From Prauserella rugosa (GTDB taxonomy: Bacteria; Actinomycetota; Actinomycetes; Mycobacteriales; Pseudonocardiaceae): 64,000 bases of DNA. Location: positions 186,001 to 250,000 of the forward strand of contig NZ_JOIJ01000005.1 in assembly GCF_000719975.1 (NCBI RefSeq), written 5' to 3'. Positions 36,208-57,879 of this stretch are shown here, in pieces; within the stretch, counting starts at the first letter, position 1, and every line of letters begins with the position of its first letter. The notes under the pieces are model-generated. The model did no database searches. It worked only from the letters and a program-made list of their open reading frames with translations, and was not told the DNA's origin. A program made the translations under genes and the position numbers.

Positions 36208-36651
36208 ATGACCGTGGAGCTGTCGCCGCCGGGTCCCGGCCGGATCAGCGCGTGCCGCATGGTTCAGCTCGCCGAACACGCCGATCCGCGAGGAAGCCTG
36301 TCCGTGGTCGAGGTCGGAGCGGACATCGACTTCGAGGTTCGGCGTGTCTATTACCTGTACCACCTGCCCGTCGCCACGGTACGCGGCGCACACGGACACC
36401 GTGATCTGCGCCAGCTGGTGGTCGCGGTGCACGGCGAGTTCGAGATCACCGTCGACGACGGCTTCGACCGGTGCCGGTATCGGCTCGACCATCCGAGCCG
36501 CGGTCTGTACATCGGGCCGATGGTGTGGCGGAACCTGATCAACTTCTCGCCGGGCGCCGTCGGTCTCGTACTGGCCTCGGCACATTACGACGAATCGGAC
36601 TACTTCCGCGACTACGACGAGTTCGTCCGTGCGGCGAGGCGGCTGCGGTGA
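36208..36651 (+). CDS. dTDP-4-keto-6-deoxyhexose 3,4-ketoisomerase (FdtA/Tyl1a-like)
   Basis: A 147-residue cupin that should convert dTDP-4-keto-6-deoxyglucose to the 3-keto isomer, the step before 3-amination. The cupin core spans residues ~15-125: QLAEHADPRGSLSVVEVGAD, RVYYLYHLPVATVRGAHGHR (active-site His pair in RGxHxH), DLRQLVVAVHGEFEITVDDG, GLYIGPMVWRNLINFSPGAV and ASAHYDESDYFRDYDEFVR. Sugar stereochemistry (gluco as in mycaminose or galacto as in Fuc3N) cannot be told. It overlaps the aminotransferase by GTGA. First gene of the sugar branch of the proposed RiPP cluster. Confidence 0.88.
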   Translation: MTVELSPPGPGRISACRMVQLAEHADPRGSLSVVEVGADIDFEVRRVYYLYHLPVATVRGAHGHRDLRQLVVAVHGEFEITVDDGFDRCRYRLDHPSRGLYIGPMVWRNLINFSPGAVGLVLASAHYDESDYFRDYDEFVRAARRLR

Positions 36652-37757
36652 CCGTCCCGTTCCTCGACCTCACCGGTGGCTACAACGAGCTGCGTACCGA
36701 GATCGACGCCGCGGTCGCCGGGGTGCTGCAGTCCGGCCGGTACCTGTCCGGACCACAGGTCGAGGGCTTCGAAAACGAGTTCGCCGCGTTCTGCGGCGCG
36801 GAGCACTGCGTGACCGTCGGCAGCGGCCACGCCGCGCTGGAACTCGCGCTGCGCGCGATGGGCGTCGGACCAGGGGACGAGGTCGTCGTTCCCTCGCACA
36901 CGTTCATCGCGACGTGGATGGCCGTGTCGGCGACCGGAGCACTGCCGGTGCCGGTCGAACCGGACGCGTCGACGGCCACGATGGACCCGGCGCGGATCGA
37001 CGCGGCCCTCACGGCGCGCACGGCGGCGATCGTGCCCGTGCATTTGTACGGGCACCCGGCCGACCTCGATGCCATCGACGCCATCGCACAGCGCCGAGGC
37101 GTGGCGGTGTTGGAGGACGCGGCTCAGGCGCATGGTGCTCGCTACCGGGGACGACGGATCGGCTCCGGCGGGAACGCTGCGGCCTTCTCGTTCTATCCCG
37201 GCAAGAACCTCGGTGCCTTCGGCGACGGCGGGGCCGTCGTCACCGATGACCCGCAGCTCGCGCGGCGCGTGCGCCTGCTGAGCAACTACGGCTCCGCGGT
37301 GAAGTACCGCCACGACGTACGCGGCACGAACTCCCGCCTCGACGAAGTGCGTGCCGCCGTCCTGCGCGTGAAGCTGCCGCACCTGGAGTCCTGGAACGCG
37401 CGCCGTGGCCGGATCGCCGCCCGCTATCTGCGGGAACTGGACGGCGCTCTCGCGCTGCCGGCCGTGGCCGGGTGGGCGGATCCGGTGTGGCATCTGTTCG
37501 TGGTCCGCACGCAGTTGCGCGAACGGCTGCGGCAGGTCCTGTCGGACCGCGGTGTGGACACCCAGATCCACTACCCGGTGCCCCCGCACCGCAGCGCTGC
37601 CTACGCGGATCATCCGGCGGCGTCAGCGCACCTTCCGGTCGCGGACGGCTTTGCGTGCGAGGCGCTGAGCCTGCCGATCGGGCCGCACCTGACCGATGAC
37701 AACGTCACCGTCGTCGTCGAGGCGGTGACCGACGCGGTCACGGCCTCGTGCCGATGA
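36648..37757 (+). CDS. DegT/DnrJ/EryC1/StrS aminotransferase (TylB/FdtB-like)
   Basis: A 369-residue PLP-dependent sugar aminotransferase expected to convert dTDP-3-keto-6-deoxyhexose to the 3-amino sugar. Motifs: FLDLTGGYNELRTEIDAAVA, GRYLSGPQVEGFENEFAAFC, VTVGSGHAALELALRAMGVG, LEDAAQAHGARYRGRRIGSG (Asp157 contacts PLP), FSFYPGKNLGAFGDGGAVVT (Lys186 forms the Schiff base) and YGSAVKYRHDVRGTNSRLDE. The length fits the family. It starts with GTG in the end of the ketoisomerase gene and overlaps the convergent N-methyltransferase gene tail to tail by 20 bases. Confidence 0.92.
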   Translation: MTVPFLDLTGGYNELRTEIDAAVAGVLQSGRYLSGPQVEGFENEFAAFCGAEHCVTVGSGHAALELALRAMGVGPGDEVVVPSHTFIATWMAVSATGALPVPVEPDASTATMDPARIDAALTARTAAIVPVHLYGHPADLDAIDAIAQRRGVAVLEDAAQAHGARYRGRRIGSGGNAAAFSFYPGKNLGAFGDGGAVVTDDPQLARRVRLLSNYGSAVKYRHDVRGTNSRLDEVRAAVLRVKLPHLESWNARRGRIAARYLRELDGALALPAVAGWADPVWHLFVVRTQLRERLRQVLSDRGVDTQIHYPVPPHRSAAYADHPAASAHLPVADGFACEALSLPIGPHLTDDNVTVVVEAVTDAVTASCR

Positions 37758-38457
37758 ACAGACCACGCCCGGACGGCCCTGAGGCGAGGTAGTCGACCGC
37801 ACACCCAGCTGTTCGGAACGCGGTTTCGTACTCCTCACGCGTGAACAACGTGATGTGGTGTACGTCGACGAACGACGCGATCCCGTCCGGGCCGGCCACC
37901 ACGTAGTGCACCTCGACGCGGCTGATGCGACCCTCCACAGTGGAGTGGGAGACGCGTGCGATGGTGCGCCCGTCCGACTCGACGACGTCACCGGCGACGT
38001 AGCCGGGAAGGAACGTGTCGGGAAACCACCACGGCTCGATCACCAGCGTTCCGCCGCTGGACAGATGTTCGGCCATGGCGCCGATCCCTGCGTTGAGCTC
38101 GGCGGTGTCGGCCAGATGCCCGATCGAGCTGAACATGCAGGTGACGACGTCGAATCGGGAGCCGAGAGAGAAATCGCGCATGTCCCCGTGGTGCAGCGGT
38201 ACGTTCGGCAACGTTCTGCGGGCCACGGCGAGCATGTCCGCCGACAGCTCGAGGCCCTCGACGTGCGGGCAGAACTGCGCGAAGCGCCGTAGGTGTGCAC
38301 CCGTTCCGCACGCGACGTCGAGCAGCGAACCGGCGCTGCCTCCGCGCCGGCGAACGAGCTCGATCACCGACGCCGCCTCCGCCGAGTGATCCTTGCCCCT
38401 GCTCGCGTAGAACCCGTCGTAAATCTCCGCCAACTCGACCGGGTAACCGCTCGTCAT
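37738..38457 (-). CDS. dTDP-aminosugar N,N-dimethyltransferase (TylM1/DesVI-like)
   Basis: A 239-residue SAM-dependent enzyme. SAM site: GSLLDVACGTGAHLRRFAQF (residues ~42-61). Acidic ribose contact: VEGLELSADMLAVARRTLPN. Family-specific stretches: FDVVTCMFSSIGHLADTAEL, TLVIEPWWFPDTFLPGYVAG (the WWFPxTFxxGYVAG run is characteristic of TylM1/DesVI) and VDVHHITLFTREEYETAFRT. It should dimethylate the amino group installed by the neighbouring aminotransferase. It overlaps the following glycosyltransferase gene by 4 bases. Confidence 0.88.
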   Translation of the reverse strand: MTSGYPVELAEIYDGFYASRGKDHSAEAASVIELVRRRGGSAGSLLDVACGTGAHLRRFAQFCPHVEGLELSADMLAVARRTLPNVPLHHGDMRDFSLGSRFDVVTCMFSSIGHLADTAELNAGIGAMAEHLSSGGTLVIEPWWFPDTFLPGYVAGDVVESDGRTIARVSHSTVEGRISRVEVHYVVAGPDGIASFVDVHHITLFTREEYETAFRTAGCAVDYLASGPSGRGLFIGTRP

Positions 38458-39740
38458 GCCGACCTCCCTGACCGAAGGACGAGTCGTTGCAGCTCGGCCG
38501 CGAGCTCGGCAGGGCCCGGCTGGTCCTCCATCTCGGCGCGGAGCCGGCGTGCGGCTTCGCTGAACTCCGGTTCGGTCAGCACTCTGCGCACGGCCTCACG
38601 GAGTGACTCGGTGGTGAGACCGCCGACCGGTTCGGTGAGTCCCGCACCGGTGTCGGCGAGCATGCGTGCCTTCAATGGCGCATCCCAGATCTCCGGGACG
38701 ATGACCTGCGGGACGGCGTAGTGGAGCGCGGTTCCCCAGGTTCCCGCCCCACCGTGATGCACGATCGCGTCACAGTGGGGAAGCAGTGCGTGGAGTGGTA
38801 CACGGTCGACCACGCGGACGCTGTCCGGAAGCCGGCCGAGCGTCTCCGCCTGCTCGGCGGTGAGTGTCGCCACGACCTCCACGCCCAGATCCGCCACCGC
38901 GTGGAGGAGCTCACCGGGTGGGACGGAGTGGACGCCCGCCTTGCCGTCGCGCGCCGAGACGCCGAGGGTGACGCACACCCGCGGAACGTCGGGAGGGTTC
39001 CGCAACCAGTCAGGTACCCGGGAAGGCCCGTTGTAGGGCACATAGCGGGTCGACAGCACGTGCTCGTCGGTCGGCAGCCGCAGGCTCGGCGGCTCCACCT
39101 CGATGGTCCAGTGTCCGAACGCGACGTCCTCGTCGAACGTGCACCCGTATCGGTGCAGCGTCCAGCCGAGCCACTCGCCGAGCGGGTCGTCGTGGTGTTC
39201 GGGCGGCATTCGATCGAGTGCCCCGAGCAGTGCGCGGCGCGAACGGCCGAGGACGTCGGCGCCCCACAGCAGGCGCGCGTGCCGCGCCCCGCACACCGTC
39301 GCGGCCACGCCACCCGCGTAGGTGAATGGTTCCCACAGCACCAGGTCCGGTTTCCAGTGTTGGGCGTACTCGGTGAGTTCGTCCACGAAGAGGTCGTTGA
39401 GCGGCGCGAACACCGTGGGGGTCAGGATCGTCCACAGCCCCAGGAGGTCCGCGAAATCCGGGGCGCCGTCGAGCAGATCGGTGAAGTCGATCCGCGGTGC
39501 GTTCCCCGGTTGTCCCGCCAACGCGGCTTGGTGCTCCCACACGGTGTGGTCCGAACCCAGCGGAACGGCTGTCAGCCCGGCGCCGGTGATCGTCTCGGCC
39601 AGACCGGGCTGTGCGGCCACACGCACCTCGTGGCCGGCAAGGCGCATCGCCCAGGCGAGCGGCACCATGCTGTGGAAATGGGTCGTGTGGTCGATGCAGG
39701 TGAACAGCACCCGCATCGGTCGCCCGGAGCTGTGCGTCAC
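38454..39740 (-). CDS. Activator-dependent glycosyltransferase (TylM2/DesVII/EryCIII-like)
   Basis: A 428-residue GT-B enzyme. N-terminal: MRVLFTCIDHTTHFHSMVPL, then AWAMRLAGHEVRVAAQPGLA. Middle: VLWEPFTYAGGVAATVCGAR. Sugar-nucleotide site: CDAIVHHGGAGTWGTALHYA, VPQVIVPEIWDAPLKARMLA. The H-T-T-H-F-x-S-M-V-P-L start is typical of macrolide aminosugar transferases that need a P450-like helper, and such a helper is encoded directly upstream. The GTG at 39740 overlaps that helper's stop (GTGA); the ATG at 39716 is the alternative. The acceptor is inferred to be the product of this cluster. Confidence 0.88.
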   Translation of the reverse strand: MTHSSGRPMRVLFTCIDHTTHFHSMVPLAWAMRLAGHEVRVAAQPGLAETITGAGLTAVPLGSDHTVWEHQAALAGQPGNAPRIDFTDLLDGAPDFADLLGLWTILTPTVFAPLNDLFVDELTEYAQHWKPDLVLWEPFTYAGGVAATVCGARHARLLWGADVLGRSRRALLGALDRMPPEHHDDPLGEWLGWTLHRYGCTFDEDVAFGHWTIEVEPPSLRLPTDEHVLSTRYVPYNGPSRVPDWLRNPPDVPRVCVTLGVSARDGKAGVHSVPPGELLHAVADLGVEVVATLTAEQAETLGRLPDSVRVVDRVPLHALLPHCDAIVHHGGAGTWGTALHYAVPQVIVPEIWDAPLKARMLADTGAGLTEPVGGLTTESLREAVRRVLTEPEFSEAARRLRAEMEDQPGPAELAAELQRLVLRSGRSA

Positions 39741-40780
39741 GCGACCTCCCATCGGGCGATGCGAGCTGCGACGGGGGAACGCCGATGCCACAACGGCTGC
39801 CTCAGCGCCAGATCCGGCCATCGCCGGCGCAGGGCGGTCACCCCGACGACCGCTGTGCGTTCGACCAGCGGAACGACGGTCTCGTAGGCGGGCTCGGCCG
39901 TGACGATCTCGCTCCCGTCCCGGACCGCTGCGGCGTCGACGACGACGTGATCACCGGCCGATATGCGTTGTCCGCCCAGCTCCACGTCGTCGTGCGCCAC
40001 CCGGTTGAGCAGCCGCAGCGGCGGATGTTCCCGCATCGACTCCTGGACCGCGTCGCCGGGATCGGCGTCCGCCCGGTGAACCGCGTGTGCGATCAGCGTC
40101 GGGGTGGTGGCGAGGTACAGCACGAGCGCGCTGATCCGGCCCGCGACGTCGTCGGAGGACAGTGTCGGCGTCCACCGGGAGCCGAGTTCGCGTAGCGCCT
40201 GCGTCGCAGCCAGCGCGGTCTCCAGATGCGCCGGGGTGGACAGGGCGTCCGGAACCGCCGCCAAGGCACCACGATGTCCGTCCACCGGGCCGGTGCCGAA
40301 GATCTCGGCGGCCACGCGTGCGGCCAGCGGCTCGGCGAAGTCGGCCATCAGTTCACGCGGTGGGCCTTCGGCACCGTCGAGGAGTGCGTCGACGTGCCTG
40401 CGAATCACCTCGTCGCTGTCGGCCACGGCGCCGTCGCCGATGAGCAGACGGACGGCGGCGGCAGCTCGGGCGCGGGCGCTGCCTTCCAGCTGCAGGTAGG
40501 CCTCGTCGAACGGCATGACCTGCAGGTGCGATTTCGAACCGTCGGCACGCCGGACACCGAACGTCGCCGCACCGAGGACGCGGTCGGCGAGCTTGCGATC
40601 GGTACACAGCCAGGCGCCGATCCTGCTGCGGGACAATCCCTCGGCGGTGACGGTGCGCGGTCCGGAATGGGACCCCACGAGGATGCTCGCGTACTCGTCA
40701 CCTGCCAACGACTCCTGCCACAGCAGGCTGCGGACGAGTTGCAACCGGTGGCCGAGTTGCGCTGCGGTCAGCGTGCCCAT
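39737..40780 (-). CDS. P450-like glycosyltransferase activator (TylM3/DesVIII/EryCII family)
   Basis: A 347-residue cytochrome-P450 homologue that has lost the heme site. It keeps P450-like stretches (LQLVRSLLWQESLAGDEYAS, HVDALLDGAEGPPRELMADF, LAARVAAEIFGTGPVDGHRG, LNRVAHDDVELGGQRISAGD, HVVVDAAAVRDGSE) but ends in WPDLALRQPLWHRRSPVAAR with no F-G-x-G-x-H-x-C motif. Members act as allosteric partners of macrolide-type aminosugar transferases. Its adjacency to the transferase gene, in the same order as tylM3-tylM2 and desVIII-desVII, supports this strongly. Confidence 0.85.
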   Translation of the reverse strand: MGTLTAAQLGHRLQLVRSLLWQESLAGDEYASILVGSHSGPRTVTAEGLSRSRIGAWLCTDRKLADRVLGAATFGVRRADGSKSHLQVMPFDEAYLQLEGSARARAAAAVRLLIGDGAVADSDEVIRRHVDALLDGAEGPPRELMADFAEPLAARVAAEIFGTGPVDGHRGALAAVPDALSTPAHLETALAATQALRELGSRWTPTLSSDDVAGRISALVLYLATTPTLIAHAVHRADADPGDAVQESMREHPPLRLLNRVAHDDVELGGQRISAGDHVVVDAAAVRDGSEIVTAEPAYETVVPLVERTAVVGVTALRRRWPDLALRQPLWHRRSPVAARIARWEVA

Positions 40781-42054
40781 GTTCCGTTTCCGGCACGATC
40801 TCCCACCCACGACTCCAACAGCGCACAGGCCTCGTCGAGGCCGCGTTCGGCTTCGATCCGCGGTCCGATCCAGCGAGCACGGTCGCGGATCCGGTGATCC
40901 CCGAGCGTTCTGATCAGCGCGTCGTGCACGCGAGTGGTGGACAGCCTCGGTGCGGGGATCGGAGCGGGAGCCACGCCCAGTGCGGCCATGCGAGCAGCCC
41001 AGAACGGGTGATCGACGAAGATCGGCACCACGACCTGGGGGACACCCGCCCTGAGCACGGCGGAGCCGGTGCCGAATCCACCGTGATGGATGACCGTCGC
41101 CGCGCGAGGGAACAGCCAGGAGTAGTCGGCGTCGTGGATCCGGAGTACATCGTCGGGAAGTTCTTCCTGCGAGGGGCCGTCGACGACGATCAGCCGATGT
41201 CCGGTGCGCCGTACGGCGTCGGCCACCATGTGGAGGCTTCCGGGTGGATAGGCGGGCCACAGGCTGCCGAACGAGAGCACGATCGGTTCGGGCTTGCGCT
41301 CGACCGCCTCCACGAGCTCCGGACCAGGTGTCCAATCAGGACGATCCCAGTACCAGTAGCCCGCGAGCATGTGCCCGCGTGGCCAGTCGGCAGGAGCCGG
41401 CAGTACGTCGGGGCTCTGCAGATACAGGAACGCGCCCCGCCGTTCCAACTCGGCGAACGGCGTGCCGGTGCCCAAGGGCCGGAGGCCGAGGTCGTCACGG
41501 TAGGCGTTGACGATCGGGCGGGTCATGCGCCACTCCATCGCCCGCGAGATGCGGTGGGTGAGGCGGTTGTACCAGCCTCCGAGCGGCAGAGACGGTGCTC
41601 CCATGGCGGGGAACGCCGACGTGGGGGTACTCGGATACCAGGACACCATCGCCCACGGTGTCTCCGGCTCCGCGGCGAGGAAGATGTTCCGGTTGAAGCT
41701 CGAGCCGACGACGAGGTCGGCCCCCTCGTAGGCGGAACTGAGCCGGCTCTGCAACTGAGCCAGGCCCGCGGCAGCGGCCTTCGCGTCGGCGTTGGGCGGC
41801 CTGCGGAGCGAACGCAACAGGCGCGTCGCCGGAGACCGGTACCGCAGGGACTCGATGACCTCCGGCGACTCGAAGTAGTGCCTGGGGCTGCCGGGAACAG
41901 GATGGAATTCGAGTCCCGCCTCGGCCGTGAGCTCACGGAAGTCGGCGTGCGTTGCAAGGCGCACCTCGTGCCCTCGTTCGCGCATGGCCGAACCCAGCGC
42001 GAGGAAGGGCTGCACGTCGCCTCGGGAGCCCACGACGGCCATCGCGATGCGCAC
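40768..42054 (-). CDS. GT1-family glycosyltransferase (sterol/vancomycin GT-like)
   Basis: A 428-residue GT-B enzyme of the class whose N-terminus reads RIAMAVVGSRGDVQPFLALG (residues 2-21), typical of sterol and glycopeptide glucosyltransferases. It continues with SAMRERGHEVRLATHADFRE and AGYWYWDRPDWTPGPELVEA. The donor site is ATVIHHGGFGTGSAVLRAGV, PQVVVPIFVDHPFWAARMAA. This is a second transferase, independent of the P450-like helper, so the product may carry two sugars or a non-aminated one. It overlaps the helper gene by 13 bases and follows the methyltransferase by 3 bases. Confidence 0.85.
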   Translation of the reverse strand: MRIAMAVVGSRGDVQPFLALGSAMRERGHEVRLATHADFRELTAEAGLEFHPVPGSPRHYFESPEVIESLRYRSPATRLLRSLRRPPNADAKAAAAGLAQLQSRLSSAYEGADLVVGSSFNRNIFLAAEPETPWAMVSWYPSTPTSAFPAMGAPSLPLGGWYNRLTHRISRAMEWRMTRPIVNAYRDDLGLRPLGTGTPFAELERRGAFLYLQSPDVLPAPADWPRGHMLAGYWYWDRPDWTPGPELVEAVERKPEPIVLSFGSLWPAYPPGSLHMVADAVRRTGHRLIVVDGPSQEELPDDVLRIHDADYSWLFPRAATVIHHGGFGTGSAVLRAGVPQVVVPIFVDHPFWAARMAALGVAPAPIPAPRLSTTRVHDALIRTLGDHRIRDRARWIGPRIEAERGLDEACALLESWVGDRAGNGTWAR

Positions 42055-42057: not shown

Positions 42058-42798
42058 CTAATCGGCCTTCCGGTACACCGTGATGTAGCGTTCGGCACCC
42101 GGCCGGAGCGGCGATCGGTCCCAGTCGGCGAATCTGTCGACTTTGGTCAGACCGGCGAGGCGCGCCATGAGGTCCAGTTCGTTCGGCCACGCGTATCGGC
42201 TGGCCTCGGTGAAAGTGGACACCGACCCGGAGCCGATCACGGCGTGCACCTCGTAGAGCATCTGGTTGACGCTGTCGACCATGATCGTGTCGAGCATCAG
42301 TTTGTCCGGGGCGAGGTGCCGGGTTTGCAGCGTCGGTTTCGTGAGCTGGTGGAAGTAGGACGGTTCGGCGGCCTCGATGACGACCCGCCCGCCGGGCACG
42401 AGATGTGCCGCGGCGTTCCTGAGCGTTTCGATCTGCTGCTCACTGTCCAGAATCATGAACAGCGTGTTGCACACGATGTAGCACAGATCGAAGTTGCCGT
42501 CGATGAGGTGCTCGGAGAAGTCGCCCTGGACGGCCTTCACCGTCGACTCCGGGTCCCGCTCCCTCAGTTTCTCGATCATGCGCGCCGACGCCTCGATGCC
42601 GTGCACGGAGAAACCCTCCTGTGCCAGCGGAAGTGCGACGCGGCCCGTTCCGGGACCGAACTCGACGACGCGACCTCCCTCCGGAACGAGGGAGCCGAGG
42701 AACGACACCGTGTCCGCGGTCTCGTGGTGCGGGTACATGAAGTCGTAGACGTCGGCGAGTGCGTCGCCGTAGGCACCCGGGTTCATCGGGCCGGACAT
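42058..42798 (-). CDS. SAM-dependent methyltransferase
   Basis: A 246-residue class I methyltransferase. It shows GDALADVYDFMYPHHETADT at the N-terminus, the SAM-binding loop RVVEFGPGTGRVALPLAQEG (residues ~43-62), the acidic turn FSVHGIEASARMIEKLRERD and the post-I region DGNFDLCYIVCNTLFMILDS. Then come HLVPGGRVVIEAAEPSYFHQ and a C-terminal RPGAERYITVYRKAD. The acceptor is unknown. It could act on the peptide N-terminus, as linaridin CypM-type enzymes do, or on a sugar. It overlaps the WRFFAP-protein gene by 16 bases. Confidence 0.8.
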   Translation of the reverse strand: MSGPMNPGAYGDALADVYDFMYPHHETADTVSFLGSLVPEGGRVVEFGPGTGRVALPLAQEGFSVHGIEASARMIEKLRERDPESTVKAVQGDFSEHLIDGNFDLCYIVCNTLFMILDSEQQIETLRNAAAHLVPGGRVVIEAAEPSYFHQLTKPTLQTRHLAPDKLMLDTIMVDSVNQMLYEVHAVIGSGSVSTFTEASRYAWPNELDLMARLAGLTKVDRFADWDRSPLRPGAERYITVYRKAD

Positions 42799-43394
42799 GA
42801 CTCTTCGTCCTCCTGGTGAGTCGTTGCCGCGGGCGTGCGGATCCGGCCATGACCACCGCCGTCGACGGCGTGGAAGTCCGACAGGAACAGCATGCGTGGT
42901 TCGACGGTCCTGTCGTGCCCGGCGGACTGGGCGATGAGGAACTGCACCTGTACGGCACGGGGGTGATGGACCACCTGGTTGGTCGCGAAGTTCAGCAGAG
43001 CCAGGTAGGGGACCGTGAGCTGGATTCGCTCGGGTTCGGGGACCTGTTCGGTGGCCTTGAGCAGTTCGGATGCGACGTCGAAGAGAGCCTTCTCCATGCG
43101 ACGTCCGGGATGCCACACCATCTGCAACAGCGTGCGGTTGATGACGACCTCCTGCTCCCGCCACGGCGTGAGCGTCCCGTCGTCGAGTTTGTCCCGGTAG
43201 AGCACGTTGAAGTCGTGCCGTGCGGGTGTCGGGGCGAAGAAGCGCCAGTTGGGGATCGCCATCGCGGTCGGGTCGATGCGCGTACCGAGCGCCAGCGGGC
43301 GGTCGGCCTGCTGCGCCACGGTCAGCGCGAACCATCCGGCGAGCGTCCCGTACAAGCCCCAGCGGCACGCGGTTCTCGTGATCGGTTTGCTCAT
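42783..43394 (-). CDS. WRFFAP-motif membrane-anchored protein, copy 1 (HTTM partner-like)
   Basis: A 203-residue protein with one N-terminal membrane helix (RWGLYGTLAGWFALTVAQQA, residues ~11-30), then AIPNWRFFAPTPARHDFNVL (the motif), YRDKLDDGTLTPWREQEVVI and MVWHPGRRMEKALFDVASEL. The W-R-x-F-A-P-x-P motif recalls DUF5819-like proteins often encoded beside HTTM proteins, but this family is shorter. A clear paralogue lies at 49050-49670. The reaction is unknown. It is part of a three-gene set with the hydrolase and HTTM genes, all overlapping by 4 bases. Confidence 0.75.
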   Translation of the reverse strand: MSKPITRTACRWGLYGTLAGWFALTVAQQADRPLALGTRIDPTAMAIPNWRFFAPTPARHDFNVLYRDKLDDGTLTPWREQEVVINRTLLQMVWHPGRRMEKALFDVASELLKATEQVPEPERIQLTVPYLALLNFATNQVVHHPRAVQVQFLIAQSAGHDRTVEPRMLFLSDFHAVDGGGHGRIRTPAATTHQEDEESCPAR

Positions 43395-47610: not shown

Positions 47611-47868
47611 ATGAATCCGATCGAACAGGCCGCCGGCGCGGCGACGTCTGGCGAGGGCGGTCTGCGTCCGCTCGAGCGGGTCGAGCACTGTGCACCGGTA
47701 CTCGGCACCCCGGCGTGGGTCACCGCGGCCGGCGTGCTCTACGTCGCGGGCAACATGGTGACGGACCTGATCGGCCAGGAGTCCCGTGTGGATGGCCAGG
47801 GCCAGGACCTCACCGGAAAGTCCGGCGCCGAGTTGCTCGACATCCGTCGCAGCGGCATGCGCGCCTGA
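47611..47868 (+). CDS. Linaridin-like precursor peptide 2 (85 aa)
   Basis: A small peptide with a strong ribosome site (GCGAGGAGTGATGTC). Residues 29-34 are PVLGTP, matching the PxxxTP leader motif I know from linaridin precursors. A hydrophobic segment follows (AWVTAAGVLYVAGNMVTDLI, residues 35-54), then a polar Gly/Gln stretch and SGAELLDIR (71-79), with final RSGMRA. Precursors 1 and 3 share the C-terminal S-x-x-E/D-L-x-x-x-R. The core has no Cys, so no AviCys ring is expected; Thr and Ser residues could be dehydrated. It lies alone on the plus strand, opposite the modification operon. Confidence 0.65.
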   Translation: MNPIEQAAGAATSGEGGLRPLERVEHCAPVLGTPAWVTAAGVLYVAGNMVTDLIGQESRVDGQGQDLTGKSGAELLDIRRSGMRA

Positions 47869-50610: not shown

Positions 50611-52424
50611 GGGTTCTCCCGTCCACGTCCGGCCGCGGGGCCTTGCTGGATGGCGTTCAGTCGTTGATACAGCGGACTACCGGCGAGCAACTCGCGATGT
50701 GTGCCCAGTGCTCGGACACCGCCGGCTTCCATGACCACGATCCGATCGGCGTCGACCACGGTCGACATCCGATGCGCAACGCTGATCACCGTGCATTCGG
50801 CGGAGATCCTGCGCAGGGAGTTGCGCAGAACGAGTTCGGACTCGGAGTCCAGATTGGACGTCGCCTCGTCCAGCAGCAGAACCGCGGGTCTGCGGACGAG
50901 CATTCGCGCGATGGCCAGGCGTTGACGCTGACCACCGGACAGGCCGACGCCGCTCTCGCCGAGCTCGGTGTCCAGGCCGCGGGGGAGGGCGCGGATCACG
51001 TCGGTGAGACCGGACAACCACAGCGCGCGCTCGATCTCCGTCGACGTCGCGTGGTTCTCGCCGTACACGAGGTTCTCCCCGATGGTGCCGCGCAGTGTGG
51101 TGCTCTCCTGCTGCACGTAGCCGACCAGGCCGCGCACGATGTTGACCGGGATCGCGTTGATGTTCTCGCCGTTGATGAGGATCCGCCCGCCCTGCACGGG
51201 GTAGAAGCGCATCAGCAGTTGCAGCAGCGTGGTCTTGCCCGAACCGGAGGGGCCCACGATCGCCGTGAGGCCGCGTGCGGGGACCGAGAACGACACGCCG
51301 CGCAGCACGGGTTCGTCGGGCTCGTACGCGAACCGGACTCGTTGGAACTCGACACCGAAGTGGTTGTAAATGACCGTGTCGCGGGACGCGAGCACGTCGT
51401 CGGGGTGCCGTGCCGTTGCCCCGGCGGGCGTGTGGGGGAGCAGAACGGACGGCTCCTGCGGAATGGAGGCGAGCTCGTTGATCCTGCCGATGGCCGCTCG
51501 GCCCTGCTGCAGCTGGCCGATCCCGATGAACAGGGTCATCAACGGCGACACCAGATAGAACAGGTACATGATGAACGCCGTCACGTCCGCGGCACTGATG
51601 GCGCCCGTCGCCGCGCGGCCCATTCCCGTGATGATCACCGCGGCGAGCGAGGCCTGCAGGCCGATGCTCATCACCGGCGACAACATCGCGTTGAGCGCGC
51701 TGACCTTGATTCCCGAACTCCGAGCGGCGAAGGCGACCCCGCCAATGCGGTTGCCCTCCAGCTCCTCGGCCCGGCAGGCCTTGACCGTGCTGAACGCACC
51801 GATCGCCCGTTGGAGATCGGAACCGAGGTCGCCGACGATCGCGCGGTTGTGCTGGGCCACGGTGCGGAGCCTGCGTGCGAGCAGGAGCGACACGGCGCTG
51901 GCGATGCCGAGCCCACCTGCCGTGACCCCGAGCAGCAGTGGGTCGATCAAGAACATGAGCACGATGCCGCCGACCACCATGGCGCTGTCGATGAAGATGC
52001 TGGGCAGGCTCTGCGCCAGTGCGATCTTCAACAGCGACGTGTCGGTGACGACCCGCGCCTGCACGTCACCGTGCCGCAGTTTGCCGAACGCGGTCACGTC
52101 GGCGTGCAACAGCTTGTCCAGCAGTGCGACGCGGGTGTCGTAGACGATCCGTTCGCCCGTCCTGCCCATGCTGTAGGCCTGCACGGCGGTCAGTGCCGCC
52201 TCGCCGAGGAACAACCCGACGACGACGATGATGGGGACGAACAACCCGGCGTCCGTGCCGACCACACCGATCAGCTGGCCGATCAGGGCCGGTTGGGCGA
52301 GCCCTGCGGCCGCGGCACCGAGTCCGAGCACGATGGCACCGCAGATCTTCGGAAGGTGTCGTCGCGTGATCTCGCCGACCCAGTCGTGCGGGGTCGGCGA
52401 CTCGGAGTGGGCCGTGCGGAACAT
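50607..52424 (-). CDS. ABC transporter, fused permease-ATPase exporter
   Basis: A 605-residue type IV exporter: about six membrane helices in the first ~320 residues (AIVLGLGAAAAGLAQPALIG, FVPIIVVVGLFLGEAALTAV, IFIDSAMVVGGIVLMFLIDP) and an ATPase domain with Walker A in AIVGPSGSGKTTLLQLLMRF (~390), signature in GVGLSGGQRQRLAIARMLVR and Walker B in AVLLLDEATSNLDSESELVL. There is no N-terminal C39 peptidase, so leader removal must be done elsewhere. ATG at 52424 follows the HTTM copy 2 stop by 4 bases. Likely exports the mature peptide. Confidence 0.9.
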   Translation of the reverse strand: MFRTAHSESPTPHDWVGEITRRHLPKICGAIVLGLGAAAAGLAQPALIGQLIGVVGTDAGLFVPIIVVVGLFLGEAALTAVQAYSMGRTGERIVYDTRVALLDKLLHADVTAFGKLRHGDVQARVVTDTSLLKIALAQSLPSIFIDSAMVVGGIVLMFLIDPLLLGVTAGGLGIASAVSLLLARRLRTVAQHNRAIVGDLGSDLQRAIGAFSTVKACRAEELEGNRIGGVAFAARSSGIKVSALNAMLSPVMSIGLQASLAAVIITGMGRAATGAISAADVTAFIMYLFYLVSPLMTLFIGIGQLQQGRAAIGRINELASIPQEPSVLLPHTPAGATARHPDDVLASRDTVIYNHFGVEFQRVRFAYEPDEPVLRGVSFSVPARGLTAIVGPSGSGKTTLLQLLMRFYPVQGGRILINGENINAIPVNIVRGLVGYVQQESTTLRGTIGENLVYGENHATSTEIERALWLSGLTDVIRALPRGLDTELGESGVGLSGGQRQRLAIARMLVRRPAVLLLDEATSNLDSESELVLRNSLRRISAECTVISVAHRMSTVVDADRIVVMEAGGVRALGTHRELLAGSPLYQRLNAIQQGPAAGRGRENP

Positions 52425-52428: not shown

Positions 52429-53301
52429 TCAGTCCGACCGGCTGCGGTCGGTCCGGCCGAGACCGCGGGCACAGTACGCGATGGCGGGATAAGTCCCGAG
52501 GAACGCCCACACGAACCGGTTCAGGCCCATGAACACGGCGTTGCTTCCGTGGAAGCCGGCACCGACCGCCAGCAGCGCGCGTGCCACCGGCCCGGGAGCC
52601 ACGAGTACGAGCGGGAAGAGCGTCTCGCCCACGATGGTCACGTGACCGAGGGCGCGGGACAGTCGCGGGCGGTCGCGCAGGAAGTCGAAGGCGAAGCGGT
52701 GGCCGAACATCCGGGTGCGGAAGATGTCCCGCACCGCGGTGCCGTCGCGCCACACCGGTGAGATGGCCTTCGCCACGCCCGCGATGCCGTAGGACAAACA
52801 GGACTGTGCTGCGATGAACCACAGGCACGCCTGCCTCGCGCGCGGGTCGGAGGCGAACGCCTTCGACAGTGCGAGAGTTGTGAGCGAGATCGTCAACACG
52901 GTCTCGGACCCGTCCGAGCCGTACGGGCTGCGCGCGTGTACCGCGAAGTTGGTGGCAGCCAGGTAGGTCGCCGCCGTGTTCTTGCTCGTCGCCGAGGCCT
53001 TCGGGTTCATCAGCGTGGCCGCGGCGAGTACCCGGAGACCGAACAGTCCTTGGATGCCGGGCTTGTCGAAGAACACGCCGAGCACCTTCTCGGCACGACC
53101 CGTCATCCACCGGTAGCGCGTACGCGCGGTCTCCCAGCTCAGGAGCTCACCGCGGTCGAAATCTTTCGAGGAAGCCAGGTACTCCAGTGAGGACACGGCG
53201 GCGCCGAGCCCGGTGAGGGCCTCGACCTGCCGCAGTGCACGGTCCTGACGATCCCGGTCGATGTGGGCCCGGCGGGCGGGGAACAGGGCGGCTTTCGTCA
53301 C
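52429..53301 (-). CDS. HTTM-like membrane protein, copy 2
   Basis: A 290-residue paralogue of 44377-45243. Shared stretches: ACLWFIAAQSCLSYGIAGVA, SPVWRDGTAVRDIFRTRMFG, TIVGETLFPLVLVAPGPVAR, GFHGSNAVFMGLNRFVWAFL and GTYPAIAYCARGLG. The two proteins agree closely in the last ~100 residues and diverge more before. The GTG at 53301 gives a length equal to copy 1. It lies directly after the precursor 1 gene and 4 bases before the exporter gene, so it is part of the same operon. Confidence 0.75.
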   Translation of the reverse strand: MTKAALFPARRAHIDRDRQDRALRQVEALTGLGAAVSSLEYLASSKDFDRGELLSWETARTRYRWMTGRAEKVLGVFFDKPGIQGLFGLRVLAAATLMNPKASATSKNTAATYLAATNFAVHARSPYGSDGSETVLTISLTTLALSKAFASDPRARQACLWFIAAQSCLSYGIAGVAKAISPVWRDGTAVRDIFRTRMFGHRFAFDFLRDRPRLSRALGHVTIVGETLFPLVLVAPGPVARALLAVGAGFHGSNAVFMGLNRFVWAFLGTYPAIAYCARGLGRTDRSRSD

Positions 53302-53381: not shown

Positions 53382-53642
53382 TCAGTTGATGCTGGAGACC
53401 CGCATGTCGAGCAGGTCGCCGACCGAGCCGTAGTTGGGGACCGGGCCGGTGGGCGTGACCTTGTCGGATCCGTGGTGCTCGACGGCGTCCGAGATGAGGC
53501 CGGCGGTGAAGACAGCCGCGGCGGCCGCCGTGTAGCCGGCGTACGCGGGCGTGGCCAGCACGGGACCGACGGCCGAGGTGACCTCGAGCGGGCTCAGCAC
53601 GTTGTCGGCGTGCTGGTTCGCGAACGCTTCCACGTTGCTCAT
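53382..53642 (-). CDS. Linaridin-like precursor peptide 1 (86 aa)
   Basis: A small peptide with a strong ribosome site (TAAGGAGCAACC). Residues 27-32 are PVLATP, a PxxxTP motif as in linaridin leaders, preceded by SPLEVTSAVG. If the core starts after TP it is residues 33-86: AYAGYTAAAAAVFTAGLI, then a polar Gly/His/Pro stretch, then SVGDLLDMR (73-81) and VSSIN. Candidate dehydration sites are T38, T46, S51, T63, T65, S73, S83 and S84. The core has no Cys. It heads the operon HTTM - exporter - hydrolase - WRFFAP - FAD oxidoreductase. Confidence 0.7.
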   Translation of the reverse strand: MSNVEAFANQHADNVLSPLEVTSAVGPVLATPAYAGYTAAAAAVFTAGLISDAVEHHGSDKVTPTGPVPNYGSVGDLLDMRVSSIN

Positions 53643-53762: not shown

Positions 53763-54746
53763 TCAGATCAGGCCCGGCTGCGGACGGCCACCGAGCTGTG
53801 CATGTGCCACGGCCCGCTCGGCCCGCGGCGATACGAGGAACTCCCGCGCCAGCGTCTCGGCGTCGCGCCAGCATTCCTGCAGTGCGTGTCCGTTGTAGAG
53901 CGCCGAACCACCGGCTTTGCCGAAGGAGAAACGGATGGTTTCGATCGCGGTCTGGTATGTGTGCAGGGCAGCGGCGGCGAACGTGACACGGCGTGCGGTC
54001 GTCAGTGTGGTTCCGGATGCGCTGTCGGGAAGACGTGCGAGTTCGGTGTGGAAAAGTGCGCGTGCGGCTCGGAAATCCTGCACGGTTCGGTTCAGCTCGG
54101 TCTGGAGCAACGGTTCCTCCGCCATTCGGTGCACCGAGCCGAGTCGGGATCTGTGGCGCGCGGTACGCGTGATCTCGGTGAGCGCGCGGCGGGCGAGTCC
54201 GAGAAGTACGGAGGTTTCGGCGCACCGGGCCGTCACCGGAAGCAGGTGTCCCGTTCCGGGCGCGAACGCGTCGTGGACGGCATTCTCAGGCACGGCAAGC
54301 CCGGTTACCGACACGGTGCGCGGGTGCACGGAGAGCAGCCCGGCGGGCCGGTTCGTTCCGATGTGGACAGCGCCGCGTGGGACGAGTACCAGGACCGGTT
54401 CGGTCCCGATTCCGGCGATCGAATCGCGTTGTGCCACGAGCCCGAACCTGGACGCCGTTTCGGCACCGGGCACGCCCGGCCACTCCCCGTCGAGCACGTA
54501 GCCGCGCGGAGTGCGGACGAGTGTTCCGCCGGGGCGAAGGCATCCGGTCAGGGGGCCGTCGGACGTCGCGGGCCCGCCGACGACCGTTGCGAGCGTCGCC
54601 GATCTGGCCAGCAGCAGTCCGTTGCCCGCGTCGATACCGCCCGCCTCCTCGCAGGCGCGGTGCAGTTCCTCCCACGTGCATGCCGCGGCAGGACCCGGTT
54701 CGCCGGTGTCGTTCGCGGCTGGTCCCGTCGCCAGGAGGTCCGTCAC
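53763..54746 (-). CDS. Acyl-CoA dehydrogenase-like flavoprotein
   Basis: A 327-residue protein with the middle and C-terminal parts of the acyl-CoA dehydrogenase / HsaA-type monooxygenase fold (LVRTPRGYVLDGEWPGVPGA, SVTGLAVPENAVHDAFAPG, LLGLARRALTEITRTARHRS, and a final helical bundle with TAIETIRFSFGKAGGSALYN and GHALQECWRDAETLAREFLV). It lacks a full N-terminal domain, and the catalytic Glu of true dehydrogenases is not evident, so oxygenation or a partner role is more likely. It overlaps the larger SRPBCC fusion gene by 4 bases, suggesting a complex of the two. Confidence 0.72.
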   Translation of the reverse strand: MTDLLATGPAANDTGEPGPAAACTWEELHRACEEAGGIDAGNGLLLARSATLATVVGGPATSDGPLTGCLRPGGTLVRTPRGYVLDGEWPGVPGAETASRFGLVAQRDSIAGIGTEPVLVLVPRGAVHIGTNRPAGLLSVHPRTVSVTGLAVPENAVHDAFAPGTGHLLPVTARCAETSVLLGLARRALTEITRTARHRSRLGSVHRMAEEPLLQTELNRTVQDFRAARALFHTELARLPDSASGTTLTTARRVTFAAAALHTYQTAIETIRFSFGKAGGSALYNGHALQECWRDAETLAREFLVSPRAERAVAHAQLGGRPQPGLI

Positions 54747-56263
54747 GGGCGATCACCGCCGATGAACCGGACCGCGTTGCGCCGGACGACGTCGTCGCTG
54801 ACGGCGAGATGCTGACCTGCGGCGACGATGTCTCGTTGGCAGCGCTCGAGTGCGGGGTTAGCCGCATGCGCCCCGAGGAGGTTGGCCTCGCCCACGATGC
54901 GTTTGGCCGTGTCGGTGACGTGGCGGAGCGCGAGTGCCAGGCGCGGATCGTCACGGCTCGGCGGGTTGGCGTCGTCGCCGAACCGTTCACAGTAATCGTC
55001 CACTGTGTGCAGTGCCAGAGCTCGGGCGGCGGCGAGGTCCGTCTCGAGCCGGGCGAGTTCGACGGCGACGTCGACGTCGTCAAGGAGTGGTGCGTTCCCG
55101 GCAAGGGCGGCGATCTCGTCGAGTGCGCGCCGGGCGATCCCCAGTGGCAGGCCGATCATCAGCACGCCCTGGATGTTGTAGGGGCTGAGCCGGTGTAGTC
55201 GTCCGCCACAGCGTGCTGTCGCGGAGAACAGCGGCGCAAGCCGTCGCGCCGGGACTTCGCAATCGGTGAGCACCAGGTCGTGACTGCCGGTACCGGCCAG
55301 CCCGGCGACGTGCCAGGTGTCGACGATCTCGGCACTGCGGCGGGGGACGACGGCCAGCATGGGTTCGGCGCCTCCTTCGGTCGGTACGGTGACGCCACCC
55401 ATCAGCCAGTCGGCATGGAGGCAGCCGCTGTTGAACCGCCAGCGTCCGCTCACCCGGTAGGTGTCGGTTCCGGACGGCTCTGCCTGACCGGAGATCGCCG
55501 TCGAACCGGCCAGGATCACACCGCCGTCGCCGCCCGCGAACTCCTTCGCCACCGGCTCGTCGAACCAGGCGAGGTAGGCCGACTGATTCCCGATGAAGGT
55601 GCACCATCCGGCGGCGGCGTCGGCAGCGGAGAGCTCGGCAACGGTGTCGACGACGGTACGGAAGTCGTAGTCGCGTCCACCGAGGACGTCGGGGGCACCG
55701 AGCCGGAAGAGTCCGCCCGCACGGATCGCCGCGACACATCCCGCGTCGAGGGTCGCCGCTGCCGCGGAGTGCTCCGCACGGTCACGGAGGAACGGAGCCA
55801 ACGCGCGGGCGACGGCCGCGGGGTCCCCGGCGTCGGCAATCGCGCGCATTCTCGTCATCACAGCGGCCCAGCGCACGAGCGCGGTGTCCGCGTCGGCCAC
55901 TGCACGCCACACCGAATCCACGGCGGCTGGCAGCTCCCCGGTGACCTGCCAGCGCAGAATGCCGGTGCCGTCGTCCGCCTCGTCGACCCGCCAGCGCAGT
56001 GCGGGCGCTTCGGCGTCGTCCGGGGTCAGCGTTGCGACCCGGTCACGTGCGTCGGTCGCGACGGTGACCTCGGCACTCGCCTCCGGTGTGGTCAGCCGGT
56101 AGCGTGCGCGTTCCCACGTACCGTCGCCTCTCCTGCCCGCGAAGTCCACGGTGAACGCGCCGGCGAGGCCCGTCCAGCTCTGCGGTGAGGACAGCAGCAG
56201 CCAGGCCGATGCCGCGGGGGCGGCGATCGGGCGTTGCGACGTCGTGCAGCTGTCCATCGGCAC
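54743..56263 (-). CDS. SRPBCC domain fused to acyl-CoA dehydrogenase-like monooxygenase
   Basis: A 506-residue fusion. Residues ~10-140 look like a START/SRPBCC fold (PIAAPAASAWLLLSSPQSWT, WERARYRLTTPEASAEVTVA, GTGILRWQVTGELPAAVDSV, WRAVADADTALVRWAAVMTR). Residues ~150-500 are acyl-CoA-dehydrogenase/HsaA-like (LDAGCVAAIRAGGLFRLGAP, DAAAGWCTFIGNQSAYLAWF, YRVSGRWRFNSGCLHADWLM, AGLAGTGSHDLVLTDCEVPA, RCQRDIVAAGQHLAVSDDVV). The combination is unusual. It sits between a P450 gene and the second flavoprotein gene and may hydroxylate or desaturate the peptide or another product. Confidence 0.75.
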   Translation of the reverse strand: MPMDSCTTSQRPIAAPAASAWLLLSSPQSWTGLAGAFTVDFAGRRGDGTWERARYRLTTPEASAEVTVATDARDRVATLTPDDAEAPALRWRVDEADDGTGILRWQVTGELPAAVDSVWRAVADADTALVRWAAVMTRMRAIADAGDPAAVARALAPFLRDRAEHSAAAATLDAGCVAAIRAGGLFRLGAPDVLGGRDYDFRTVVDTVAELSAADAAAGWCTFIGNQSAYLAWFDEPVAKEFAGGDGGVILAGSTAISGQAEPSGTDTYRVSGRWRFNSGCLHADWLMGGVTVPTEGGAEPMLAVVPRRSAEIVDTWHVAGLAGTGSHDLVLTDCEVPARRLAPLFSATARCGGRLHRLSPYNIQGVLMIGLPLGIARRALDEIAALAGNAPLLDDVDVAVELARLETDLAAARALALHTVDDYCERFGDDANPPSRDDPRLALALRHVTDTAKRIVGEANLLGAHAANPALERCQRDIVAAGQHLAVSDDVVRRNAVRFIGGDRP

Positions 56264-56297: not shown

Positions 56298-57566
56298 TCA
56301 TCCGAATGAGTTCCGGCCGGACGAGGATGGGGCCACCGCCGCGCACTCGCGGAGTCGGACCGGCAGGGCCTGCACCGACCGCAGGGTCTCCGACGGTTGC
56401 CAGCGGACCTTGTCGGCGGGGATGGCGAGTTCCAGGTCGGGGAACCGGTGAAGGAGGGCTTCGAGACCGGCGGTCAATGCCGCCCGGGCATGGTGGGCGG
56501 CCGGGCAGTGGTGCCGGCCTGCACCGAACGCGAGGTGCCTGCGCGGAGAGCGGTCTAGGTCGAAACGATGGGGACAGGGGTGGACGGCCGGGTCGTGGTT
56601 GGCGGCGCCGAGGGCGAACGCCACGAGATCGCCCCTGGCGATGCGCTGACCGCCGAGTTCGAGGTCCTCGGTGGCACACCGTTGGGCGCTGATGTTGTGC
56701 GGTCCGGTGAGCCGAAGCAGTTCCTCGAGCGCGGTGGTGATCTGTTCGGGATCGTCGTGCAGCGACCGCAACTGCGCGGGGTTGGTCAGCAGCAGGTACG
56801 TCGCGGTGGCGAGGAAGCTGTAGACGGTTTCGCTGCTGATCATGAGGAAGATCAGCAGAGCGCGGTTGAGCGAGTCCAGGTCGCCGACCCCGATCCGTGC
56901 GACGAGCGCGGACACGACGTCGTCGGCGGGGTCGTCCTGCCGAGCCACAGCTGTCGCTCGGAAGTGCGCGTTCAGTTCGGTCACGGCCGCCTCGCGGCCC
57001 GCGTCGTCCCGTGCGGACAGCCAGGCGTGTACGGCGCGGTGGAAGCGCTCCGGTTCGGTCACCCCGAGGAGATGACTGGACACCCGGATCGAGTAGGGCA
57101 ACGTGTAGTGCTGCACGAGGTCGACCGGAACGTCGGTGTCGTCTATGCCGCCGAGCACGTCGGCGGCAATGGCACCGAAGGCACCCGCCTGCCGCGCCGC
57201 GTGGTCGGCCGACAGCGTGTCGCGTACGACCGAGGTCACGTCCCCCGTGAACGAGCGCAGGAACAGAGTCACCTCGTCCAGTTCATACTCGGCGGCCGGG
57301 GTGATCGTTCCGCGTTCCGAGAGCTGGCGGGTGCGCGCCGAGGCGATGAGGTCGGGATCCTTCGACAGCCGCCGATCCAGGAGACCCGAGGTGATCTCCG
57401 TGGAGCCTACGACGAGCCAGAACCGCGACCCGTCCCGCGCGTGCAACACGTGCACCGGACCGGAGTCCCGCAGCCGGTCGAAGAACGGGAACGGATCGCG
57501 GAAGAAGTCCTCGTCGACGGGCAGCAACGCGGTCACGGGCGGTTCCTCCTCGCAGTAGGTGACCAC
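56298..57566 (-). CDS. Cytochrome P450
   Basis: A 422-residue heme monooxygenase. The heme-binding loop is HLAFGAGRHHCPAAHHARAA (residues ~350-369) with the axial Cys. The ExxR helix is in ALEELLRLTGPHNISAQR. The I-helix reads FLMISSETVYSFLATATYLL, where the usual A-G before the acid-Thr pair is S-S. Unlike the P450-like helper at 39737, it has a complete heme site and should be catalytic. It lies 40 bases after precursor 3 and upstream of two flavoprotein genes. Substrate unknown; a tailoring role in the cluster is inferred. Confidence 0.9.
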   Translation of the reverse strand: MVTYCEEEPPVTALLPVDEDFFRDPFPFFDRLRDSGPVHVLHARDGSRFWLVVGSTEITSGLLDRRLSKDPDLIASARTRQLSERGTITPAAEYELDEVTLFLRSFTGDVTSVVRDTLSADHAARQAGAFGAIAADVLGGIDDTDVPVDLVQHYTLPYSIRVSSHLLGVTEPERFHRAVHAWLSARDDAGREAAVTELNAHFRATAVARQDDPADDVVSALVARIGVGDLDSLNRALLIFLMISSETVYSFLATATYLLLTNPAQLRSLHDDPEQITTALEELLRLTGPHNISAQRCATEDLELGGQRIARGDLVAFALGAANHDPAVHPCPHRFDLDRSPRRHLAFGAGRHHCPAAHHARAALTAGLEALLHRFPDLELAIPADKVRWQPSETLRSVQALPVRLRECAAVAPSSSGRNSFG

Positions 57567-57606
57567 AGGGCGGCGGTCCGTGCCGCGCCGCTGCGGACGG
57601 TCCTCG

Positions 57607-57879
57607 TCAGTCGGTGAGAACGCCGGCGCGCGCGGCCGTCAGTTCGGTGACGGACGCGTGTTCGTGGATCTCGATCGCGGCGATGTGCGAGGTGCCGCCG
57701 GCGGAACCGCCCGCGGCGTCGACGATGGCCTGGTACGTGGTCGCGGTGAGAACGCCGGTGGTCACCTGTGCGATGTCGATCTGGGCGGGCGCTGCGCTCG
57801 AGATCGCGCCCGGCTCCACGTGGTCGGAGGCGTTGGCGGCGAGCGCGGCCGGTGTCGCGGTCGGCGTGGGGGTGGGCAT
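57607..57879 (-). CDS. Candidate precursor peptide 3 (90 aa)
   Basis: A small Ala/Thr/Ser-rich peptide. ATG at 57879 with GGAG at -10 to -7 is chosen; the in-frame upstream extension lacks pattern. Start: MPTPTPTATPAALAANASDH. Middle hydrophobic part: IDIAQVTTGVLTATTYQAIV. It ends with SVTELTAAR (76-84) and AGVLTD, aligning with SVGDLLDMR and SGAELLDIR of precursors 1 and 2. It lacks the PxxxTP motif, so it may belong to a different subgroup. It is the first gene of the operon with P450 and the two flavoproteins. Confidence 0.5.
   Translation of the reverse strand: MPTPTPTATPAALAANASDHVEPGAISSAAPAQIDIAQVTTGVLTATTYQAIVDAAGGSAGGTSHIAAIEIHEHASVTELTAARAGVLTD

What the first reader, a model, noticed from the sequence alone, without database searches (positions are those of the whole stretch)
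36208..57879. A gene cluster that looks built for a glycosylated linaridin-like peptide
Seen: three small hydrophobic peptides with a common C-terminal motif, two with PxxxTP, embedded among paired hydrolase/HTTM/WRFFAP genes, an exporter, a methyltransferase, redox enzymes, and a complete late aminosugar branch with helper-dependent glycosyltransferase. Known: PxxxTP leaders and a hydrolase-fold protein are features of linaridins. Inference: the peptide is dehydrated, perhaps N-methylated, and decorated with an N,N-dimethylaminosugar. I know of no glycosylated linaridin.
Basis: partly seen in the sequence, partly recalled or inferred. Interest (0 to 1): 0.92.

Follow-up and report, generated by a model that had tools for sequence, protein, structure and literature searches.

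The report
Aminosugar-decorated two-peptide linaridin-type gene cluster
An actinobacterium carries one conserved gene cluster that appears to make a pair of modified small peptides of the linaridin kind and to attach a macrolide-style dimethylamino sugar to at least one of them, a combination of which I saw no example in the papers I could search.

Summary
The observation largely holds. At 36.2-57.6 kb two 85-86 aa precursors with PVL[AG]TP (PEP1, PEP2) lie among two sets of HTTM, alpha/beta hydrolase and WRFFAP (DUF5819-like) genes, an ABC exporter, a CypM-like methyltransferase, flavoenzymes, a P450 and FdtA/FdtB/N,N-dimethyltransferase/EryCIII-type glycosyltransferase/P450-like helper. HTTM, hydrolase, WRFFAP and methyltransferase proteins are homologous to those beside cypemycin-family precursors in named genomes. 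The glycosylation genes overlap with maturation set 1, and that order recurs in five other genomes of the family. Of 32 other linaridin-type loci read (about 20 kb each) none has the cassette; one has a weak glycosyltransferase fragment. The third peptide (57607-57879) is not supported by a profile of the others. New points: the two sets are separate clades kept together in nine genomes, each beside its own peptide type in two of them. The best-conserved precursor element is C-terminal, S-x2-[EDQ]-L-L-x2-R; in paralogues it and the leader flank a variable core, like a follower. Window cores are poor in Thr/Ser, so heavy dehydration is doubtful. Best reading: a two-component, aminoglycosylated linaridin-type RiPP; product unproven. 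Novelty: new variant of a known kind.

The parts
53382..53642 (-). PEP1 precursor, 86 aa, PVLATP leader motif, C-terminal SVGDLLDMR motif
47611..47868 (+). PEP2 precursor, 85 aa, PVLGTP, C-terminal SGAELLDIR motif
57607..57879 (-). possible third small peptide upstream of the P450; kinship to PEP1/PEP2 not supported by profile
52429..53301 (-). HTTM2, membrane protein with GGCX-like predicted fold, linaridin maturation set 2
50607..52424 (-). ABC exporter (membrane + ATPase); 42-54% identical to exporters in 11 of 32 other linaridin-type loci read
49633..50610 (-). alpha/beta hydrolase of set 2, GHSFG nucleophile motif
49050..49643 (-). WRFFAP protein of set 2 (DUF5819)
47924..49057 (-). FAD-dependent oxidoreductase
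46776..47423 (-). GPP34-domain protein
46340..46723 (+). DCC1-like thiol-disulfide oxidoreductase
45652..46350 (+). LuxR-type regulator
44377..45243 (-). HTTM1, set 1
43391..44380 (-). alpha/beta hydrolase, set 1, GHSVG motif
42783..43394 (-). WRFFAP protein, set 1 (DUF5819 only below the Pfam cut-off)
42058..42798 (-). methyltransferase homologous to CypM (nearest solved relative CcbJ)
40768..42054 (-). second glycosyltransferase (Glyco_transf_28 / EryCIII-like C)
39737..40780 (-). P450-like helper without heme-cysteine motif
38454..39716 (-). EryCIII-type glycosyltransferase, presumably helper-dependent
37738..38457 (-). dTDP-3-amino-3,6-dideoxyhexose N,N-dimethyltransferase
36648..37757 (+). 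DegT-type sugar aminotransferase
36208..36651 (+). FdtA-type dTDP-sugar 3,4-ketoisomerase
53763..54746 (-). acyl-CoA-dehydrogenase-type flavoprotein 1
54743..56263 (-). acyl-CoA-dehydrogenase-type flavoprotein 2
56298..57566 (-). cytochrome P450 with heme motif FGAGRHHCPA
35512..36114 (+). response regulator (named by eye), probable left extension of the cluster
   Evidence: read; end of frame
34301..35515 (+). histidine kinase, probable left extension
32434..34292 (-). ABC-2 permease and ATPase, probable left extension (immunity?)

Best explanation
One biosynthetic cluster for a two-component, linaridin-type RiPP carrying a 3-N,N-dimethylamino-3,6-dideoxyhexose. Shown by sequence: two precursor types, two complete HTTM/hydrolase/WRFFAP maturation sets, a CypM-like methyltransferase, an exporter of the linaridin kind, and a glycosyltransferase with helper and sugar N,N-dimethyltransferase co-directional and overlapping with set 1. 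Inferred: set 2 matures PEP1 and set 1 matures PEP2. HTTM (predicted fold of the vitamin-K carboxylase GGCX) with the hydrolase and WRFFAP protein works at peptide alpha-carbons in the membrane, giving dehydration and/or epimerisation. The leader is cut after PVL[AG]TP, and the methyltransferase dimethylates the exposed N-terminal Ala. The conserved C-terminal S-x2-[EDQ]-L-L-x2-R segment acts as a follower or docking element. RmlA/RmlB encoded elsewhere feed FdtA, the aminotransferase and the N,N-dimethyltransferase. The glycosyltransferase-helper pair attaches the sugar; Tyr34/Tyr37 just after the PEP1 cleavage site are the best-guess acceptors. The second glycosyltransferase may add another sugar.
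Confidence: 0.62

Rival explanations
1. The sugar genes belong to a separate small-molecule pathway and only sit next to a linaridin-type cluster, or the glycosyltransferases decorate another metabolite.
For: More distant GT1 relatives (50-51% identical) in G108, G055 and G068 lie with NMT and a helper, and in two of the three with FdtA/FdtB, but without HTTM or peptide hits in 20 kb, so the cassette is a general aminosugar module. G024 and G053 have the peptide core without sugar genes beside it.
Against: Overlapping reading frames between sugar and set-1 genes; same order in five other genomes of three other genera; no PKS or NRPS domain among the genes scanned in 36-58 kb; the five closest GT1 relatives all in peptide clusters.
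Confidence: 0.17
2. Compatible with the main reading on sugar and pairing, but the linaridin-type enzymes mainly epimerise or lightly modify hydrophobic peptides rather than dehydrate them; the aminosugar adds charge.
For: Few Thr/Ser in the window cores. Eleven other linaridin-type loci carry two PxxxTP peptides with short Ala/Gly-rich cores (picked by eye). A review passage reports grmL as indispensable and a possible epimerase gene (PMC10373908).
Against: PEP1-type paralogues in G024 and G053 have cores with 6-10 Thr, as expected for dehydration.
Confidence: 0.35
3. Each peptide makes a separate product and no pair acts together; two maturation sets reflect fusion of two neighbouring clusters.
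For: Set 1 and set 2 have different single-set sister clades; in the window PEP2 lies on the other strand from PEP1, away from set 1.
Against: PEP1 and PEP2 types occur together in 10 of 11 genomes, including the single-set loci.
Confidence: 0.25

Closest known systems
Type A linaridins (cypemycin family; loci L045, L046)
   Same: HTTM, hydrolase, WRFFAP and CypM-type methyltransferase homologues; the cypemycin core starts with Ala (recalled), as the window's would after TP
   Different: HTTM and hydrolase are fused there; they have a protein I take for the Cys decarboxylase and a C-terminal Cys, neither seen here; no sugar genes seen, one peptide
Type B linaridins (legonaridin, corynaridin)
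   Same: PxxxTP cleavage motif, HTTM protein, hydrolase, exporter, no decarboxylase (PMC9927463, passages)
   Different: Corynaridin as described has one Thr-rich precursor, one enzyme set, a short-chain oxidoreductase and no sugar genes named
Cacaoidin (class V lanthipeptide)
   Same: N-terminally dimethylated RiPP glycosylated on Tyr (PMC8068269, passages)
   Different: Disaccharide of rhamnose and 6-deoxygulose; the paper finds no linaridin-type dehydratase genes in its cluster
Macrolide aminosugar cassettes (EryCIII/EryCII, DesVII/DesVIII type; names recalled)
   Same: 3,4-ketoisomerase, aminotransferase, N,N-dimethyltransferase, glycosyltransferase and P450-like helper
   Different: Here joined to a peptide operon rather than a polyketide cluster
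Two-peptide lantibiotics such as lacticin 3147 (recalled)
   Same: Two precursors, each with its own modifying enzyme
   Different: Unrelated enzymes, no sugar

Membership tests
Linaridin | HTTM-type membrane protein plus hydrolase homologous to those beside a cypemycin-family precursor | tested here: met
   both sets
Linaridin | third conserved core protein (WRFFAP; LinL or LinH, letter not verifiable here) | tested here: met
   HTTM and WRFFAP hits together in 32 of 32 other loci read (chosen by HTTM)
Linaridin | precursor with PxxxTP cleavage motif | tested here: met
   PEP1 and PEP2; intact motif missing from PEP1-type peptides of G024, G053, G150 and G134
Linaridin | Thr-rich core peptide | tested here: not met
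   window cores: 4 Thr of 54 and 3 Thr of 51; Thr-rich only in relatives G024 and G053
Linaridin | dehydrobutyrine in the product | not testable with these tools
   needs mass spectrometry
Linaridin | alpha-N-methyltransferase of CypM type | tested here: inconclusive
   homologous to CypM but closer to CcbJ among solved proteins; activity not tested
Type A linaridin | Cys decarboxylase and C-terminal Cys | tested here: not met
   no hit of the L046 decarboxylase-position protein in the window; no Cys at the C-terminus of PEP1/PEP2
Type B linaridin | short-chain oxidoreductase gene | tested here: not met
   no short-chain dehydrogenase domain among the proteins scanned
Macrolide-type aminosugar glycosyltransferase system | EryCIII-family glycosyltransferase beside a heme-less P450-like helper | tested here: met
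Two-component RiPP | two precursors, each with its own enzyme set, acting together | tested here: inconclusive
   gene pairing; joint action untestable here

The most novel reading that the evidence does not exclude
A two-component RiPP in which each hydrophobic precursor is held by a leader and a conserved C-terminal follower, processed inside the membrane by its own dedicated GGCX-fold/hydrolase/WRFFAP complex, then N-dimethylated and decorated with a mycaminose-like sugar by a macrolide-type glycosyltransferase pair. It would be the first aminoglycosylated linaridin-type peptide, and the first with paired maturation complexes, that I know of.
Probability: 0.33. Interest if true: 0.86.

Novelty: new variant of a known kind. 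Interest (0 to 1): 0.7.

Why it matters
If true, it brings macrolide aminosugar chemistry to a ribosomal peptide and gives a natural peptide substrate for EryCIII/EryCII-type enzymes. The two maturation sets, with natural paralogues of conserved flanks and variable cores, are a ready system for asking which part of a precursor the poorly understood linaridin enzymes read. The GGCX-like predicted fold with an invariant Lys and His in all 54 HTTM rows gives a concrete, mutable candidate active site for the open question of how linaridins are dehydrated or epimerised.

Tried and rejected
Third peptide as a family member: dropped after the profile test. PxxxTP as evidence on its own: rejected, many spurious ORFs carry it. 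Plasmid copies of the cluster: none at megablast sensitivity. Pfam and NCBIfam models for the precursors: none matched. WRFFAP fold: model pLDDT 78.6, no match at E 0.001 or better among solved structures. A profile search of solved sequences with the HTTM alignment found nothing up to E = 10, so GGCX kinship rests on fold and on Pfam's HTTM model, matched by 22 of 44 relatives. The precursor profile searched over 394 class genomes gave, besides the own genome, two weak ones, G374 and G530. PEP1/PEP2 against the 32 other linaridin-type loci: no match at 1e-3. Which sugar isomer (mycaminose or ravidosamine type, names recalled) could not be decided. The papers on linaridin mining and on cypemycin genetics were not held, so which letter (LinL or LinH) the WRFFAP protein bears is unverified. 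No title or abstract start about a glycosylated linaridin appeared in the listings (15 of 18 listed; 30 of 2,416; 40 of 58; 12 of 256); the library holds only open-licence papers, so this is weak evidence of absence.
Full report
OBSERVATION. The window is bases 186001-250000 of a contig of a 5.2-Mb genome. Gene starts were set by hand from the reading frames. Two peptides carry PVL[AG]TP: PEP1 (53382-53642, minus) and PEP2 (47611-47868, plus). They lie among two sets of HTTM-like, alpha/beta hydrolase and WRFFAP genes (WRF2 reaches the DUF5819 cut-off, WRF1 and the two HTTM proteins stay below Pfam cut-offs). Beside them are an ABC exporter, a methyltransferase, an FAD enzyme, two acyl-CoA-dehydrogenase-type flavoproteins and a P450 with a heme motif. 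The sugar genes are FdtA, a DegT aminotransferase, a sugar N,N-dimethyltransferase, an EryCIII-type glycosyltransferase, a P450-like protein with no heme-cysteine motif, and a second glycosyltransferase.

THIRD PEPTIDE. The ORF at 57607-57879 ends in a segment that resembles the PEP1 C-terminus by eye. A profile built from the other 24 precursors does not single it out (E = 2.2, rank 8 of 536 window ORFs), and neither the 10 related loci nor the 32 others gave a match. It lies 40 bp upstream of the P450. In G024 a different HTTM locus also has a small ORF with a similar C-terminus next to a P450. I treat the third peptide as unproven.

LINARIDIN CORE. I needed true linaridins for comparison. 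Their precursors are followed by an HTTM-hydrolase fusion, a WRFFAP protein and a protein I take for the decarboxylase; L045 also has a CypM-type methyltransferase. The window's HTTM, hydrolase, WRFFAP and methyltransferase proteins match these with E from 8e-28 to 5e-6; the sugar methyltransferase matches CypM only at 0.001. In a draw of 394 class genomes, 24 (own included) had an HTTM2 match at 1e-6. I read 18 of the 29 non-own matches listed; the 11 left out were short and weaker than 1e-10. I also read all 14 family matches outside the PEP1 clusters. Each stretch is about 20 kb or less. HTTM and WRFFAP hits occur together in 32 of 32 (the hydrolase column there is unreliable, because the CypH query also covers HTTM). 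None of the 32 matches PEP1 or PEP2 at 1e-3, so the precursors themselves form a family of their own.

SUGAR GENES BELONG TO THE CLUSTER. On the minus strand NMT, GT1, helper, GT2, MT, WRF1, HYD1 and HTTM1 overlap or lie within 20 bp of each other. PEP1 was found in 11 of 297 family genomes. Of these 11, six (own, G294, G106, G266, G184, G090) keep GT1-helper-GT2-MT-WRF1-HYD1-HTTM1 in this order; G195 keeps FdtA, part of the aminotransferase, part of GT2, MT, WRF1 and HYD1 on an 11-kb contig, with no GT1 or NMT found. FdtA-aminotransferase-NMT is complete nearby in own, G106, G266 and G294 (in G294 a regulator, transporter and kinase lie between NMT and GT1); G184 has FdtA and NMT; G090 has none of the three locally and no FdtA in the genome at 1e-20. 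G024, G053, G150 and G134 have none of the sugar genes in the 40 kb read and no FdtA in the genome. None of the 32 other loci has FdtA, the aminotransferase, helper or GT2; one (G266, second locus) has a weak GT1 fragment; seven or eight have weak NMT hits of 26-30% identity, which I take for cross-matches to their own methyltransferase. GT1 has matches at 1e-60 in 89 of 297 genomes; the five best besides its own are exactly the peptide clusters (56-63% identity). In a tree of 30 rows the six cluster copies form one side of a branch with 91/82 support, not starred, in 93% of bootstrap trees. Of five more distant GT1 loci read, three hold NMT and a helper (two also FdtA and aminotransferase), and none of the five shows peptide or HTTM genes in 20 kb. 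So the cassette is a common aminosugar module, probably recruited once into these clusters.

WHICH SUGAR. The N,N-dimethyltransferase best matches solved dTDP-3-amino-3,6-dideoxy-glucose N,N-dimethyltransferases (2.6e-88); the aminotransferase a transaminase 2oga (7e-147; DesV from recall); GT1 and the helper the two chains of 2yjn (EryCIII and EryCII from recall). RmlB and RmlA homologues above cut-off lie on other contigs. A 3-N,N-dimethylamino-3,6-dideoxyhexose follows; gluco or galacto form is open.

TWO MATURATION SETS. In a tree of 54 HTTM rows, set 1 (9 of 9) and set 2 (9 of 9) are separate starred clades with different single-set sisters. Both sets are kept together in nine genomes. 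In G024 and G053 the order PEP1 copies-HTTM2-HYD2-WRF2-PEP2-HTTM1-HYD1-WRF1 ties each peptide type to one set. PEP1-type and PEP2-type peptides occur together in 10 of 11 genomes; in G195 PEP2 was not found. Against strict pairing, G150 and G134 have both peptides and one set.

PRECURSOR ANATOMY. In 25 aligned precursors (the doubtful third included) the invariant residues are M1, A8 and, near the C-terminus, S73, L77 and R81; PVL is nearly invariant, TP is not. In six PEP1 paralogues of G024 and G053 the first 30 residues average 70% identity, the middle 39% and the last 16 residues 70%. Those middles hold 6-10 Thr; the window's cores hold 4 Thr + 5 Ser and 3 Thr + 3 Ser. I infer leader, variable core and follower. 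The methyltransferase gene is present in the seven genomes whose PEP1 has TP-Ala and was not found in the four without it, which fits methylation of the Ala exposed after TP, though these seven are also each other's closest kin. Tyr34 and Tyr37 of PEP1 occur in the same seven and not at these columns in the other seven aligned PEP1 rows; this too is confounded by descent.

NAMES. Prauserella belongs to the Pseudonocardiaceae; that the window's family is this one is inference. Where a source names such WRFFAP and HTTM proteins, it says hypothetical, DUF5819 family, HTTM-like or lipase maturation factor, so the cluster seems unrecognised in annotation.

NOVELTY. No title or abstract start about a glycosylated linaridin appeared in nine listings of the open-access library (four of them only partly listed, as told under Tried and rejected). 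Cacaoidin, glycocins and NAI-112 are glycosylated RiPPs of other classes (PMC8068269, passages). The main mining paper on linaridins was not readable, so prior notice of such clusters cannot be excluded. Verdict: new variant of a known kind, product unproven.

Noticed in passing
L078, L080, L082, L085-L089, L168, L171, L172: Eleven of the 32 other linaridin-type loci carry two neighbouring PxxxTP peptides with short Ala/Gly-rich, GxxxG-like cores, so two-peptide linaridin-type clusters look widespread (picked by eye).
   Followed up: partly
52429-53301 and all 54 HTTM rows: Linaridin HTTM proteins: predicted GGCX-like fold (HTTM2) and an invariant Lys and His.
   Followed up: partly
32434-36114: ABC-2 transporter and/or kinase genes recur beside related clusters (G294, G184, G090, G195, and the linaridin-type locus of G009) and probably belong to this cluster as immunity or control.
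   Followed up: partly
L166:11172-12672: A single-set HTTM1/WRF1 locus with a P450 and an adjacent small ORF ending SSAAELINARRELVTQ, parallel to the window's P450 and third peptide.
   Followed up: no
46776-47423: GPP34 (Golgi phosphoprotein 3-like) protein inside a peptide cluster, also in G106; role unclear.
   Followed up: no
58073-60964: GH106-type alpha-L-rhamnosidase right after the cluster; no equivalent hit in the 10 related loci.
   Followed up: no
L167:5543-11122: Hits to HTTM1/HYD1/WRF1 in pieces, with a GT1 fragment nearby, in G266: perhaps a decayed sister cluster.
   Followed up: no
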